From Beggiatoa leptomitoformis (GTDB lineage Bacteria; Pseudomonadota; Gammaproteobacteria; Beggiatoales; Beggiatoaceae): a stretch of DNA of 64,000 bases. The notes beneath the pieces were generated by a model. It was not told where the DNA came from, did not search any database, and saw only the letters and a list, made by a program, of their open reading frames with translations. Location of the stretch: contig NZ_CP012373.2 of assembly GCF_001305575.3 (NCBI RefSeq), positions 2,800,261 to 2,864,260 of the forward strand, written 5' to 3'. Positions 9,328 through 31,906 of this stretch are shown here, piece by piece (positions within the stretch are counted from its first letter, which is position 1; the number at the start of each line of letters is the position of its first letter). Position numbers and translations under genes: made by a program.

Positions 9328-9509
9328 GACAACGTTATTTTAATAGGTTAGTAAATTAGTCGGTTTTATTGCAGTGCAGTGTACAGGATTGATAAACTAT
9401 CAGCAATAAAAACTATTTTATCAAAAACTTAAATACAATATATTTTTTTAAACTGATTTATAGACAGGGATTAGGTGTCATTTTTTTCTTAACCTATTTT
9501 TGGTAGTGC

Positions 9510-10598
9510 TAACGCGAGTACGGCGAGATAACTGGTATAAAACAGAGGATTAATGATAAAAGTTGAATAAAAGCGGAATGGAAGAAATAAAAAGTTGTAC
9601 CTAAAGGAAAAGTAGGAATAATGGAACATCACCAAACGCCTACCACCCCTTTCCAAAGGTACAACCATGTATATGATAACAATCCTGTTCTGCTCAATCG
9701 ACGACTTTTGTAAATGGTTTATGCCGTTATGGGAACAACAGTTGTTAGAAGAAGGAAACCCCAAGAAAAGTCAGCGAGATGGGACAATGTCAGCGTCGGA
9801 AGTGATGACCTTACTCGTGTTGTTTCATCAATCTAATCAACGTCATTTCAAAGGATTTTATACCCACTATGTTCCGCATGTTCTCGGGGGAGCGTTTCCG
9901 AAACGGGTCAGTTATCAACGATTTGTTGAGTTAGCCCAGTCACGCTCAGTGCTTACTTGCACAGTCGGCGGGTAAACGCTCGCGGGATTGCCTTCATTGA
10001 CTCTACACCCTTGAAAGTTTGCCACAATCGGCGAATTTCACAACATAAAACCTTTGCAAACCTCGCACAACGGGGGAAGAACTCCATTGGCTGGTATTTT
10101 GGGTTTAAATTGCATTTAGTCATTGATGATAAAGGGGAATTAATCTATTTTTTCTCACCGCCGCGAATTTTGATGACCGCAAGGGCTTAAGGGCGATGAC
10201 GCAATTTATTCAAGGTAAGTTATATGGCGACAAGGGCTATATTTCTAAGGCATTAAAGGCTACTTTGAAAACGCAAGGCATTGAATTAATCACAGGTGTC
10301 CGCAAAAACATGAAGAAAGAGCCGCTCAGTGAATTTGATACGATAATGCTAAAAAAACGTTCCTTGATAGAAACCGTCATCGGTCAGCTTAAATCATTCA
10401 CTCAGATTGAACATACCCAACATCGCAGTGTTTTGGGGTTTATGGTTAATGTCGTTGCGGGGCTTATTGCCTATACTTGGAAGCTCCATAAGCCTTCTTT
10501 GATGTTTCGTATCAATCCTAAACTTGATGAGAGCTTCCCTTTGCTAAACCCTTCTCAACCTCTTTTTATTTAAGCCCTTTTTCGTCGTACTCGCGTTA
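9510..10598 (+). mobile_element. IS982-family insertion sequence, degenerate full-length copy
   Basis: Terminal inverted repeats are TAACGCGAGTACGGCGA (9510-9526) and the complement of TAACGCGAGTACGACGA (10582-10598), 16 of 17 matching. The 1089-bp element encodes an IS982-type transposase that is frameshifted at least twice. The flanks (TAGTG ahead of the left end, GTTTAAAT after the right end) do not show a convincing target duplication. A deleted copy in the same orientation lies at 13795-14064. Confidence 0.85.
9667..10573 (+). pseudogene. IS982 transposase, frameshifted
   Basis: The coding sequence is split over three frames. 9667-about 9950 encodes the N-terminal part (MYMITILFCSIDDFCKWF onward), about 9957-10150 the middle part containing FIDSTPLKVC, and about 10150-10573 the C-terminal part (LTAANFDDRKGL, YGDKGY and RSLIETVIGQLK). 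The three DDE residues are thus all still encoded (D in FIDS, D in YGDKGY, E in LIETV) but cannot be joined without two frameshifts, one near 9950 and one in the T-run near 10145. IS982 transposases are normally about 290-300 residues in one frame, so this one is very probably inactive unless rescued by programmed shifting, for which I see no signal at the first site. Confidence 0.88.
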
Positions 10599-10622
10599 GT
10601 TTAAATTAGGATTTAGACAAAA

Positions 10623-13502: not shown

Positions 13503-13794
13503 AGGAAAATTCCTTGTCTGATTTTAAGTTATATAGTTGACGGGATTATCATAATTTAAAAGCATTAAAAGATTAATGGGGATATTGCAAAAGGGTTGAT
13601 TAGAGCAGAGACCTACTAATCTGAGTTCGTTCGGCGAGTTTCTTTTAAAAAAGACAACAGCTTGTTTGAATCAGAATTTTCAGAATTAACAGGATTTAAA
13701 ACCCTTAAACCAAGAAACTAATGCAAATCACGCTTTTTAATTCTGCTAATTCTGAAAATTCTGTGAATTCTGATTCAGACAAAAAAAGACCTAC
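13503..13794. repeat. Gene-free stretch with inverted pair of TGAATCAG-family repeats
   Basis: A repeat reading TTTGAATCAGAATTTTCAG starts at about 13665, and an inverted relative ends at about 13780 (TTCTGAAAATTCTG then TGAATTCTGATTCAGAC). Together they could fold into a long hairpin. Related single copies occur near 45.35 and 51.6 kb. No plausible coding sequence or promoter is seen elsewhere in the stretch, which leads from the caspase gene start to the deleted IS982 derivative. Confidence 0.65.
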
Positions 13795-14064
13795 TAACGC
13801 GAGTACGGCGAGATAACTGGTATAAAACAGAGGATTAATGATAAAAGTTGAATAAAAGCGGAATGGAAGAAATAAAAAGTTGTACCTAAAGGAAAAGAAG
13901 GAATAATGGAACATCACCAAACGTCCACCCCCCTTTCCAAAGGTACAACCATGGATATGATAACAATCCTGTTCTGCTCAATCCTAAACTTGATGAGAGC
14001 TTTCATTTGTTAAATCCTTCTCAACCTGTTTTTATTTAAGCCCTTTTTCGTCGTACTCGCGTAA
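13795..14064 (+). mobile_element. 270-bp MITE-like internal deletion derivative of the IS982 element
   Basis: The left 189 bp match the left end of the IS at 9510 and the right 80 bp match its right end. The join is at TCAATC (13978-13983), a hexamer present at both deletion borders in the full copy (9694-9699 and 10512-10517). Both terminal repeats are retained, with one change at the right end. It encodes nothing useful but could be moved in trans by an active IS982 transposase. Confidence 0.88.
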
Positions 14065-14293
14065 ATGTAATTTATAAAATGGTTATCATAGAAATAACCA
14101 AAGTCATGACAACTTCTGTGGAAATCATGCCCAACACGGTGGCTAATATTTAGCACTACCCTATTTTTAAGCGATGTTATCCGTTTTTAAAAATTATCTG
14201 AATCAGGATAATTACTGGAATTTAAAGGCGATATAATCAATTTATTGCAAAAACCATTTTTCTCTTAACCCATTGTTACAAGCAATTCACTCT

Positions 14294-28536: not shown

Positions 28537-28893
28537 TCAACTGGAAACGGCAGGCACAAGTTGCCCCTCTAAATTAGGCATTAAGCGTTGTAAGTTATTA
28601 AATAACATTTCATGCCACGTCACATCCTCATAACCTAACATACATAAGCGCGGGGTTTTTTTATCACGGGTTTCTATGATGAAACGGGTTAACGTATTAA
28701 TACCAGAGCTATTTAGCATTTTCAGCTCGCGTAAATCTAACGTCAACTGTTCTGTATTATCCGCAACTGCCCTTAATAGATGCAAAACGCCTTCATATTC
28801 TTTTGAGCCACCCAGCATCAAAATACCTTGAAATACAATGGTCGCGCTATCTACCTCGTAGCGAATGCAATAGTCTTTTGCTTTAATTTCCAT
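28537..28893 (-). CDS. STAS-like regulator, slr1659 type
   Basis: The 118-residue protein has the slr1659-family layout: MEIKAKDYCIRYEVDSATIVFQGILMLGGSKEY, then LTLDLRELKMLNSSGINTL, where the serine pair after N corresponds to the phosphorylatable site of anti-sigma-factor antagonists. It probably takes part in kinase/phosphatase partner switching in the cytoplasm. A SpoIIE phosphatase is encoded about 20 kb away (6697-9327). The start codon lies at the very edge of a 158-bp repeat that recurs at 31626-31782, so its promoter region has been duplicated. The hyfC-like gene follows. Confidence 0.85.
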   Translation of the reverse strand: MEIKAKDYCIRYEVDSATIVFQGILMLGGSKEYEGVLHLLRAVADNTEQLTLDLRELKMLNSSGINTLTRFIIETRDKKTPRLCMLGYEDVTWHEMLFNNLQRLMPNLEGQLVPAVSS

Positions 28894-29049
28894 GTTATAT
28901 CAGTATCATTGTAGGTAAAGACGGGTTAATAATACTGCAAATTCAGCAATAACAGCAGGTCTCTTAGCAGAAAGAATGTTACTTTAATGTGGTTTTTCTA
29001 TTTTAGAAAAAAATATTGACAGAGTTAATTTGTGTTCTACAGAACAGCG
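28892..29049. repeat. 158-bp direct repeat, copy 1 (upstream of STAS gene)
   Basis: From 28892 to 29035 this matches 31626-31769 at 143 of 144 positions (A/G at 29023/31757), then continues with one inserted base and two further changes to 29049. It starts inside the ATG of the STAS gene. It contains TTGACA at 29016-29021, but the -10 that works in copy 2 (TAGAAT) is here CAGAAC with one extra spacer base, so the outward promoter looks dead. Confidence 0.95.
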
Positions 29050-29078
29050 AGAGTGGATAAATCATTTTCTATAACAAC

Positions 29079-29109
29079 AACCTGCTAGGTTTTGAAAACT
29101 TAGCAGTTT
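29079..29109 (-). terminator. Hairpin repeat copy 4 after the LamG/PKD gene
   Basis: AACCTGCTAGGTTTT pairs with GAAAACTTAGCAGTTT with two mismatches. It begins 7 bp beyond the stop codon; on the minus strand TTGTTGTTATAG follows. It is a likely terminator and a member of the dispersed hairpin family. Confidence 0.65.
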
Positions 29110-29115
29110 GTTGTT

Positions 29116-31581
29116 TTAACGTGCGTCGTACACGTCAAAGATTAAAGAATTTGAACGTTGGGTGAAGTCAACGTTGTAAGTGGTTGTTCCGACTTTGGTA
29201 CACGGGACATTTAATATGCCAGTGTAAGTTGCTAAACAACTGTCTTTGAAATTATGCGGTTTCAAGGTTAACGGATTGAGTTCAAAACCTAATTGTAAGG
29301 GGTTTAATTGTGTCAATTCTACCGCGTAAATTTGAGAACCTAAGGGGGTTGGAACGCTCACGCAGGGAACGCATAATTGACCTGTTTCAAGTGAGAAACT
29401 GGCTTGGCAATTTGTGATGGTTGAATTAGTACAACTTGCTAGCGCGTTATTTCCTTGAATATAAATGTTTTTTACGGATTGAGAAGTTGCACCTTTGTCG
29501 TCGGTGACGGTTAAGGTAATCGCATAATCGCCCGCTTTTTCAAAGGTAAAAGTCGCGGTTTTTCCACTCTTCATTTGTCCATCTGAACTTAGCCATTCAT
29601 AACGTTGGATTGTTCCATCTGGATCATTAGAAGAACTCGCATCAACATTCACCGTTGATGGGTTTGAATTTGAACTGCTAAAGATTGCAACGGGCGGTTG
29701 GTTTATTTTAGTTTCTGTGGTTTCGTAAAGTTGCTTTATTTCTGCATCGGTTAATGCTCGATTGTAAATGCGAATGTCATCTATTGAACCGTTAAAAAAT
29801 CTCCATAAATTACCTTGTTTATTATCTGCACCAATAATTAGTGGATTAGTAGATTGTACAATACTCCCTCCCCTAGAATCATAACTAACTAATTTTCCAT
29901 TAATATATAATTTTCCTCCTCCATTTGAGGAATGACTAAATATTGTATTAACCCACTTATTTGTTGTTAATACTGTTGGTGTATTTGGAACGTCGGTATT
30001 ACAATATCGATTCGTTGCTCCAGCAATGGTATTATTACTACCTAAAGCAAGTGCATAAGTGTCTTGATTTATTGGATTAGTGCTATTTGGACAATTAAAA
30101 AACCATTTTGTTACAATACTTTCTATATTTTCTAAATTTGAAGAAATGGGTTTAAGACTATCTTTATATATCCAAACAGATATACTCATATCGTTAAATC
30201 CACTCAACTCAGGTTTGCTATTTACTCGAATATAACTTGTAGAACCATCAAATGAAAATGCAGAATTTTTATTATTAAATCTATCTTCAATTGGTGTTAC
30301 CCCATACATTACTCCATCATTCCCTTTTCCACTTTCATCTAACGCATTTGCATTAAATGGATAATACGCGACTAACCCATCGGCGGGATTAGGTAACAAA
30401 ACGTTTTTATCGTAAGCCTGTAAATTAAGGAGTGCTTGATGAGCTTTTTGAGAACAATTGCTCAAATCATTCCAACACAATTCACCGATTTGACGAATAC
30501 TTTCAGCCTCCATTTCTAATGCCACAGACAAATCTTTTATTTGCTGTTGTCGAGCCGTTGATAACGATAAATTCAACAAATTTAAGGCGTTTTGCCTATC
30601 AGCTAATAATTCTTTGTATGTGTTAGATAATTTCACACGCAAGGCTTCTATTTCAGGCGTGACTTCATTTGGCAAACTCGGTACATCAGGAATGTATTCA
30701 TACGGACAATTTTTATAATCAGTAACGGTGGGGTTTTCCCTAACGCCTGTAATGAAATCATCACTCGCCACATAATTCGCCACACCATCTAACGCCGCTG
30801 TGCACGCCGCTAAATTATCTAAAGAACAACTAAAGACCGTTCCGCCTAAAATTCGACCCAGTTGCTCGACATTTCCTCCCTTTTGAATGGCTTCAATGCG
30901 TAATGTTCCATTCTTACGGGTTGTTTCAGAGAGTTTGCTCACTTCCGCACTAAAACCACCCGAGAACGGTTTGCAACAAATCTTCAAATTGGCAATCCCC
31001 AACGATGCACCCGCTTTGAACTCGTTCTTATGGTATTCAGAAGTAAAGTCAAAATCCATTTTAACTGAGATATTTGCTCCTTTAGTTGTTTGGCAAACAT
31101 ACTGGTTTCCACAATAACGTTTGAAACCACAAGCATCATTACGGTATCTTAACCCTGTTGCATTCAAAGGATTCACTGAATCTAAAGTCGCATCGGCTGT
31201 ACCAAAAGAAACGTCGTATTCTAAAACAAACGATTGTGAAAATTGGGTTTCTCTAAACACCTTTTCATACGACGCATTGGCTTTTGCGGTGAAGACAAAA
31301 TAAGAAGCATTTGCTTCTCCTTTCACGACAAATTGCTCAAAAATATCATTAAAGCTAGAAATCACCCGACTATTAATAGTTGCTGTGCTTGTTCCAATAA
31401 AATTCTCGGTTGTGTTCAAACACGCAACTTGTTTTAATGTATTACGATCCACATCCGAACCCCACGCCAATTTTGGCACTAAGTTGTTATCAGGACGTGG
31501 CAAATTATCTAATTCTGGACAAATTGCTTGCACCATATTTGAAAGCATCAAGAAACTTAATACTGCTGCTTTGTAAAACAT
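29116..31581 (-). CDS. Large secreted protein with LamG and PKD domains and a possible pore-forming-like N-terminal region
   Basis: The 821-residue protein starts with a signal peptide (about 1-19, ending MVQA). Residues 20-300 form a cysteine-rich region I do not firmly recognise. It has SEYHKNEFKAGASLGIANLK, then TRKNGTLRIEAIQKGGNVEQ and ANYVASDDFITGVRENPTV, an order resembling the second half of MACPF/perforin-like domains. A coiled coil (about 305-370) leads to a LamG lectin-like domain (402-622, DGLVAYYPFNANALDESGKG) and a PKD domain (629-710, YEWLSSDGQM and GDYAITLTVTDDKGA). The C-terminal 100 residues are unassigned. AGGAGG precedes the start. The gene is bracketed by 158-bp direct repeats, so it looks like a late insertion. 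Extracellular or surface location is likely; the function is unknown. Confidence 0.8.
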   Translation of the reverse strand: MFYKAAVLSFLMLSNMVQAICPELDNLPRPDNNLVPKLAWGSDVDRNTLKQVACLNTTENFIGTSTATINSRVISSFNDIFEQFVVKGEANASYFVFTAKANASYEKVFRETQFSQSFVLEYDVSFGTADATLDSVNPLNATGLRYRNDACGFKRYCGNQYVCQTTKGANISVKMDFDFTSEYHKNEFKAGASLGIANLKICCKPFSGGFSAEVSKLSETTRKNGTLRIEAIQKGGNVEQLGRILGGTVFSCSLDNLAACTAALDGVANYVASDDFITGVRENPTVTDYKNCPYEYIPDVPSLPNEVTPEIEALRVKLSNTYKELLADRQNALNLLNLSLSTARQQQIKDLSVALEMEAESIRQIGELCWNDLSNCSQKAHQALLNLQAYDKNVLLPNPADGLVAYYPFNANALDESGKGNDGVMYGVTPIEDRFNNKNSAFSFDGSTSYIRVNSKPELSGFNDMSISVWIYKDSLKPISSNLENIESIVTKWFFNCPNSTNPINQDTYALALGSNNTIAGATNRYCNTDVPNTPTVLTTNKWVNTIFSHSSNGGGKLYINGKLVSYDSRGGSIVQSTNPLIIGADNKQGNLWRFFNGSIDDIRIYNRALTDAEIKQLYETTETKINQPPVAIFSSSNSNPSTVNVDASSSNDPDGTIQRYEWLSSDGQMKSGKTATFTFEKAGDYAITLTVTDDKGATSQSVKNIYIQGNNALASCTNSTITNCQASFSLETGQLCVPCVSVPTPLGSQIYAVELTQLNPLQLGFELNPLTLKPHNFKDSCLATYTGILNVPCTKVGTTTYNVDFTQRSNSLIFDVYDAR

Positions 31582-31625
31582 AGCAACCTCCTAACTCAAA
31601 AGAAAATAAAAAACTTACTAACTTA

Positions 31626-31782
31626 ATGTTATATCAGTATCATTGTAGGTAAAGACGGGTTAATAATACTGCAAATTCAGCAATAACAGCAGGTCTCTTA
31701 GCAGAAAGAATGTTACTTTAATGTGGTTTTTCTATTTTAGAAAAAAATATTGACAGGGTTAATTTGTGTCTATAGAATAGCG
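31626..31782. repeat. 158-bp direct repeat, copy 2 (between LamG gene and tRNA-Asn)
   Basis: Near-identical to 28892-29049. Its distal part holds the plus-strand promoter of the tRNA-Asn gene (TTGACA-17-TAGAAT), while its minus-strand side faces the LamG/PKD gene and probably supplies the same leader or promoter that copy 1 supplies to the STAS gene. Confidence 0.95.
31750..31778 (+). promoter_or_regulatory. Sigma-70 promoter of tRNA-Asn
   Basis: TTGACA (31750-31755), a 17-bp spacer and TAGAAT (31773-31778) fit a strong sigma-70 promoter. The following AGCGTGC is a GC-rich discriminator as found at stable-RNA promoters. A start near 31785 would leave a leader of about 47 nt before the tRNA. 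Confidence 0.75.
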
Positions 31783-31831: not shown

Positions 31832-31906
31832 TCCCCGGTAGCTCAGCGGCAGAGCAAGTGGCTGTTAACCACTGGGTCGGCGGTTCGAACCCGTCCCGGG
31901 GAGCCA
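31832..31906 (+). tRNA. tRNA-Asn (GTT)
   Basis: A 75-nt cloverleaf with encoded CCA. The acceptor stem TCCCCGG pairs with CCGGGGA, the D-arm is GCTCAGCGGCAGAGC, the anticodon loop CTGTTAA gives anticodon GTT, and the T-arm is GGGTCGGCGGTTCGAACCC in outline, with TTCGAAC conserved. It is a single tRNA. I searched the flanks by eye for a second copy of the 3' end that would mark an integrated element and found none. Confidence 0.97.

What the first reader, a model, noticed from the sequence alone, without database searches (positions are those of the whole stretch)
28892..31782. Near-identical 158-bp repeats bracket the LamG/PKD gene and duplicate the STAS/tRNA-Asn promoter region
28892-29049 and 31626-31782 differ by only a handful of bases and one indel over about 158 bp. 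Between them lies a single 821-residue secreted protein gene. The inner edge of copy 1 falls inside the STAS start codon. Copy 2 carries an intact tRNA-Asn promoter (TTGACA-17-TAGAAT), while in copy 1 the matching -10 is CAGAAC with an extra base. That pattern fits an insertion of the LamG gene together with a duplication of the original STAS/tRNA-Asn intergenic region. After that, each copy kept only the promoter its neighbour needs. RecA-mediated excision would restore the STAS-tRNA arrangement. The insertion history is inference.
Basis: partly seen in the sequence, partly recalled or inferred. Interest (0 to 1): 0.78.

Follow-up and report, generated by a model that had tools for sequence, protein, structure and literature searches.

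The report
Mobile pore-protein cassette between duplicated promoters
A single secreted-protein gene, probably a pore-former carrying a sugar-binding domain, sits in this sulfur bacterium between two copies of the switch region it was inserted into; a sister species has the same arrangement with its own version of the repeat, a nearly identical gene and a different sugar-binding domain, so the gene has recently been passed between species.

Summary
The 158-bp direct repeat is real: 28892-29049 and 31626-31782 differ by three substitutions and one indel, the first 131 bp are identical, and the genome holds only these two copies. The only same-genus genome held (G001) has the same layout: slr1659/STAS gene, repeat, LamG gene, repeat, tRNA-Asn. 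There the repeats share 97 identical bp, but the left halves are only 79% alike between species, so the repeats are species-specific. The block between them is the opposite: mostly 96-100% DNA identity and dS 0.04-0.14, against 65-84% for essentially all other sampled shared DNA. Only its LamG lectin domain (core 28% aa identity) and, less so, its PKD domain differ. In both species the tRNA promoter is intact only beside the tRNA. A model of the gene's first 395 residues matches MACPF/CDC pore-forming folds. Best reading: a single-gene cassette exchanged between Beggiatoa species, bracketed by duplicated host promoter DNA made at integration or homogenised since. Excision is possible but unobserved; a published comparison of two B. 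leptomitoformis strains reports no such deletion.

The parts
28892..29049 (.). Repeat copy 1 (STAS side); left half L 28892-28958, right half R 28959-29049
31626..31782 (.). Repeat copy 2 (tRNA-Asn side); L 31626-31692, R 31693-31782; lies upstream of both the LamG gene (minus) and tRNA-Asn (plus)
29050..31625 (-). Cassette between the repeats: terminator hairpin, gene, 5' leader; mostly 96-100% identical to the sister species outside the LamG and PKD domains
29116..31581 (-). 821-aa predicted secreted protein: hydrophobic N-terminus that looks like a signal peptide, MACPF/CDC-like domain, helical stalk, LamG, PKD, conserved C-terminal domain
   Evidence: signal peptide read by eye, not tested
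30664..31491 (-). MACPF/CDC-like region (model residues about 31-306)
   Evidence: AF2 model pLDDT 77; Foldseek hits with E<=0.001 are MACPF/CDC-superfamily structures; VIA-align Z up to 9.8
29798..30280 (-). Divergent block inside the LamG domain: a different allele in the sister species (36-55% DNA identity; core 28% aa identity)
29473..29703 (-). PKD domain, second divergent block (80% DNA identity, dS 0.63)
29073..29115 (.). Hairpin after the LamG stop codon, probable terminator; its stem motif occurs 544 times in G001 and 10 times in this genome
31750..31778 (+). Intact tRNA-Asn promoter TTGACA-17-TAGAAT in copy 2
29016..29045 (+). Decayed counterpart in copy 1: TTGACA-18-CAGAAC (G001: TTGACT-17-TGGAAC)
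28537..28893 (-). STAS-like regulator (slr1659 superfamily); start codon overlaps the left edge of copy 1
   Evidence: NF047705, 130 bits, cut-off 100
31832..31906 (+). tRNA-Asn (GTT)

Best explanation
A single-gene cassette, made of a putative secreted pore-forming lectin with its terminator and leader, was inserted between the slr1659/STAS gene and tRNA-Asn. The host intergenic region ended up on both sides, as when a circularised donor fragment carrying that region integrates by one RecA crossover, or when one end joins by homology and the other by microhomology. Because the region is duplicated, STAS keeps its promoter (copy 1), the tRNA keeps its promoter (copy 2), and the cassette gene uses the leftward promoter of copy 2; the unused tRNA promoter in copy 1 decays. 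The cassette has since moved between Beggiatoa species by recombination. In each genome the repeats are of host type, either because they were made from host DNA at each integration or because recombination between the copies keeps them alike. Shown: the layout, the species-specific repeats, the outlier identity of the cassette, the replaced LamG domain, the STAS codon relic in G001, the promoter decay. Inferred: the integration route, the promoter of the cassette gene, pore formation, and possible loss by RecA recombination.
For: Same layout in G001. Left half of the repeat: 100% within each genome, 79% between. Right half: own copies 97% to each other, G001 copy 1 91% to own, while G001's real tRNA promoter is only 62-70% like any of them, so G001's copy-1 right half travelled with the cassette. 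Identity changes at or near the repeat edges: about 0.88-1.00 from about 29050 to 31600 outside LamG/PKD, but 0.57-0.84 left of copy 1 and 0.59-0.79 across copy 2. Fourfold sites in codons 1-200 match 80/81, against 33/117 in the nearby NADHdh gene. Of 41 kb of sampled shared DNA, only this cassette reaches 95%; the other matches of 86% or more are a mobile-element-like sequence. G001 copy 2 retains the first ~9 STAS codons as a dead reading frame. tRNA promoter decayed in copy 1 of both species. Both genomes encode ComEC (PF03772), consistent with DNA uptake. Integration of circularised DNA by RecA-dependent single crossover is known to leave 109-950-bp direct duplications (PMC3240628).
Against: Only two genomes of the genus were available, and no genome with an empty STAS/tRNA-Asn site was found. 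The direction of transfer is contradictory: the right half of G001 copy 1 looks own-like, whereas the hairpin is of a family abundant in G001. The right-hand junctions differ between species (about 150 bp more in G001), so a single event does not explain everything. ComEC is widespread (10 of 14 control genomes) and does not prove transformability.
Confidence: 0.62

Rival explanations
1. Single ancient insertion in the common ancestor, inherited vertically with both repeats; gene conversion between the repeats in each lineage made them alike within genomes, and only the gene body was later exchanged by homologous recombination.
For: Both species share the left junction apart from a 27-bp gap in the own copy with CG at its ends. 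Copy 1 of both species shares the decayed -10 ending GAAC. Gene conversion alone would explain 100% identity of the left half within genomes.
Against: The orphan, unconstrained right half of G001 copy 1 is 91% identical to the own repeat although STAS and the left half are 73-79% identical; vertical descent would not be expected to keep it so alike. That half probably moved with the cassette.
Confidence: 0.25
2. Phase-variable cassette: recombination between the repeats deletes and restores the gene at useful frequency, giving subpopulations with and without the secreted protein.
For: 131 bp of perfect direct repeat 2.7 kb apart is an adequate RecA substrate (established knowledge); deletion would leave STAS and the tRNA promoter intact (sequence). 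Homogenised repeats in both species suggest continuing recombination.
Against: No excised form seen. Two B. leptomitoformis strains compared genome-wide differ by inserts of 853, 782, 378 and 11 bp only (PMC7356093). Restoration needs an outside donor.
Confidence: 0.07
3. The repeats are regulatory duplications kept by selection so that the STAS gene and the LamG gene are co-regulated; no insertion is involved.
For: Both copies lie directly upstream of leftward genes, STAS and LamG, and each species keeps identical left halves.
Against: The repeat extends over the tRNA promoter, useless in copy 1 and decayed there, and in G001 over STAS codons, useless in copy 2. Selection for a shared regulator site does not need identity over 131 bp.
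Confidence: 0.06

Closest known systems
Minimal mobile elements of Neisseria (Saunders and Snyder 2002; cited in PMC1538595)
   Same: A small gene cassette between conserved genes, without integrase or transposase, exchanged between strains or species presumably by homologous recombination.
   Different: Here the cassette is bracketed by direct duplications of the host intergenic region, and the repeats differ between species. The definition of MMEs used here (conserved flanking genes) is from memory.
Single-crossover (Campbell-type) integration of circularised DNA; homology-facilitated illegitimate recombination (PMC3240628)
   Same: Single crossover of circularised DNA leaves 109-950-bp direct duplications of the homologous locus around the insert.
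   Different: Natural locus; the event itself was not observed, and later conversion or deletions altered the junctions.
MACPF/CDC pore-forming proteins (GNIP1Aa, stonustoxin, perforin-2, perforin, TgPLP1)
   Same: Predicted fold of residues about 31-306 (Foldseek E down to 5.7e-6, VIA-align Z to 9.8); a lectin-type domain follows.
   Different: Only about 7-16% sequence identity; no Pfam MACPF match; pore formation untested.

Membership tests
MACPF/CDC fold | MACPF/CDC core fold | tested here: met
   Foldseek hits with E<=0.001 are MACPF/CDC-superfamily structures; Z up to 9.8 over 237 residues, rmsd 4.8; model pLDDT 77, pTM 0.68, so met at the level of a predicted model
MACPF/CDC fold | Sequence profile match (Pfam MACPF) | tested here: not met
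   No MACPF hit at E<=1 for any of 15 homologues; PDB profile best hit is the Aegerolysin-L pore 9uj0, E 0.0045
MACPF/CDC fold | Oligomeric membrane pore formation | not testable with these tools
   needs a biochemical assay
Minimal mobile element | Gene cassette exchanged by homologous recombination between conserved flanking genes | tested here: inconclusive
   Same flanks and exchanged cassette in two species, but no strain with an alternative cassette or empty site
Integron gene cassette | attC-type recombination site and neighbouring integrase | not tested
   No attC or integrase search was run; long duplicated host DNA at both junctions does not fit
Transposon / insertion sequence | Transposase, terminal inverted repeats and short target duplication | tested here: not met
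   Only one ORF of 80 aa or more starts between the repeats, with no transposase domain; duplication is 158 bp here and 97 bp in G001; single locus in the genome
Site-specific integration at a tRNA gene | Direct repeat of the tRNA 3' end and an integrase | tested here: not met
   Repeat ends 49 bp upstream of the tRNA and includes no tRNA sequence

The most novel reading that the evidence does not exclude
The duplicated intergenic region acts as portable homology arms: a fragment with one repeat at each end can enter any relative that has a single copy of the region, adopt host-type repeats, and be lost again exactly. This would make an integrase-free, self-framing gene cassette that spreads one pore-forming lectin gene among Beggiatoa species while its sugar-binding domain is replaced.
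Probability: 0.25. Interest if true: 0.72.

Novelty: new variant of a known kind. Interest (0 to 1): 0.52.

Why it matters
It gives a case in which the boundary of a recent gene exchange between bacterial species coincides with a duplicated host promoter, showing how a gene can be inserted between two working transcription units without breaking either. It also points to a MACPF-like protein family in Beggiatoaceae that no sequence profile labels, whose lectin domain is the part that varies between species; that would fit selection on target recognition.

Tried and rejected
Dispersed repeat: rejected, only two copies in the genome. Mobile element with transposase: rejected. tRNA-gene integration: rejected, the repeat does not include the tRNA. 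Riboswitch or other known RNA in the repeat: none; only the tRNA and two sub-threshold hits to an animal miRNA family at the hairpin, taken as chance. Plasmid or phage origin: the N-terminal domain has no phage match and three weak plasmid matches at 22-24% identity; one viral-contig scan and one genome-contig scan gave no relative. Repeats flanking LamG relatives in other genera: none of this kind; G010 has a tandem pair sharing a 710-bp stretch at 88%. Empty site in the family: STAS relatives in other genera are not beside tRNA-Asn.

Full report
Observation. The two repeats are at 28892-29049 and 31626-31782. They align over 158 columns with three substitutions and one indel, and the first 131 bp are identical. 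The genome (one contig, 4,265,317 bp) contains no third copy. Between them lies one gene of 821 codons on the minus strand, 29116-31581. To the left is a 118-aa STAS-like protein that matches NCBIfam slr1659 superfamily above its cut-off, followed by an NADHdh-family gene; to the right is tRNA-Asn. The copy edge inside the STAS start codon is the outer one.

Sister species. Among 58 genomes searched, only G001, the single other same-genus genome, has the arrangement. L062 (G001:C2:2020000-2038000) reads, in the opposite orientation, STAS (75% aa), repeat, LamG gene (81% aa overall), repeat, tRNA-Asn. The organism is probably Beggiatoa leptomitoformis and G001 probably B. alba; this rests on genome size and on the two validly named species of the genus (PMC5920184, PMC7356093), not on a name in the data.

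Repeats. In G001 the two copies share 97 bp at 100%, starting 28 bp inside the STAS coding sequence. Split at the point where the G001 copies diverge, the left half (67-69 bp) is 100% identical within each genome and 79% between genomes. In the right half (87-91 bp, tRNA promoter) the own copies are 97% alike, G001 copy 1 is 91% like both own copies, and G001 copy 2, the working tRNA promoter of that species, is only 62-70% like any of the others. So the left halves are species-specific, and the right half of G001 copy 1 goes with the cassette. The G001 copy next to the tRNA contains the first ~9 STAS codons running into an early stop, which shows that the duplicated unit was the STAS/tRNA intergenic region.

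Cassette. Aligning the two loci, identity is about 0.57-0.84 left of copy 1, rises to 0.92-0.98 from about 29000-29050, stays at 0.88-1.00 through the gene except for LamG and PKD, and falls to 0.59-0.79 across copy 2. Codon statistics: dS 0.049 (codons 1-200), 0.143 (201-330), 0.037 (331-398), 0.137 (716-821), against 2.7 in NADHdh and saturation in STAS. In the 41 kb of shared DNA found between samples of the two genomes (464 kb and 418 kb), the only alignments at 86% or more are this cassette (95.8% over 1349 bp) and a mobile-element-like sequence (89-92%). A separate 20-kb search gave 72-82% for its main matches, with scrambled gene order. Recent exchange between lineages is therefore well supported. 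The LamG core (28% aa identity) and, less strongly, PKD (76% aa, dS 0.63) differ; the own LamG domain is as close to one in another genus (G018, 49%) as to that of G001 (47%).

The protein. Pfam finds LamG and PKD only, above its cut-offs together with related lectin and PKD-like models. An alignment of 15 N-terminal homologues from Beggiatoaceae gave an AlphaFold2 model with mean pLDDT 77 and pTM 0.68. Foldseek against the PDB lists MACPF/CDC-superfamily structures at E<=0.001, and VIA-align gives Z up to 9.8 with GNIP1Aa, stonustoxin and perforin-2 over 237-264 residues at rmsd near 4.9. Pfam's MACPF model does not match by sequence. The gene is thus best described as a putative secreted MACPF-like protein with a helical stalk, LamG lectin domain, PKD domain and a conserved C-terminal domain. 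Pore formation is untested.

Promoters. Copy 2 carries TTGACA-17-TAGAAT and G001 copy 2 TTGACA-17-TACAAT. Copy 1 carries TTGACA-18-CAGAAC, and in G001 TTGACT-17-TGGAAC. The tRNA promoter has decayed in copy 1 of both species. The left half, upstream of STAS and of the LamG gene, is kept in both copies, so 'each copy kept only the promoter its neighbour needs' holds only for the tRNA promoter. The leftward promoter itself was not identified with confidence.

Junctions. At the left junction the own copy lacks 27 bp present in G001, with CG at both ends of the gap. At the right junction G001 has about 150 bp more plus the STAS codons, and the own sequence joins at an ATG shared with both sides. 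Small deletions with microhomology would explain both. The extra G001 stretch aligns weakly, but better than any of 2000 shuffles, with the own leader and left half, possibly a decayed donor copy.

Mechanism. RecA-dependent single-crossover integration of circularised DNA leaves direct duplications of 109-950 bp (PMC3240628), which matches the anatomy. Both genomes encode ComEC. Whether the repeats are host-type because each integration copied host DNA, or because gene conversion homogenised older repeats, is not settled; the own-like right half of G001 copy 1 favours lateral entry of a block into G001. The direction of transfer is unresolved because the terminator hairpin belongs to a family with 544 hits in G001 and 10 here, which points the other way. 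Exact loss by recombination between the repeats is possible in principle, but the published comparison of strains D-401 and D-402 lists no such deletion (PMC7356093).

Verdict. Observation confirmed; interpretation partly supported. New variant of a known kind: an integrase-free gene cassette exchanged by recombination, here framed by duplicated host promoter DNA. Interest 0.52.

Noticed in passing
window 30397-31581: N-terminal domain of the LamG gene predicts as a MACPF/CDC fold without any Pfam match; homologues with varied LamG/PKD tails occur across Beggiatoaceae.
   Followed up: partly
window 29073-29115; G001 genome: The hairpin motif AAAACCTAGCAGGTT (up to 1 mismatch) occurs 544 times in G001 (270 forward, 274 reverse), 10 times in this genome, 0-1 in two other genera: apparently an expanded hairpin repeat in G001.
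   Followed up: partly
L062 8346-8501: About 150 bp between the G001 cassette and its repeat copy 2 aligns weakly with the own leader and repeat left half (score 21; 0 of 2000 shuffles reach it): possible decayed third copy.
   Followed up: partly
window 9509-10608 and 13794-14074: Mobile-element-like sequence shared with several G001 sites at 89-92% identity.
   Followed up: no
L064 9187-9891 and 11665-12356: G010 has two LamG/MACPF-like genes in tandem whose 3' ends share 710 bp at 88%, another sign of local duplication in this family.
   Followed up: no
L095 7614-8335 and 9266-10011: 746-bp direct repeat at 93.7% identity in this genome, not examined.
   Followed up: no
window 28537-28893: The STAS-like gene is one of about six slr1659-type paralogues listed in each of the two genomes.
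   Followed up: no
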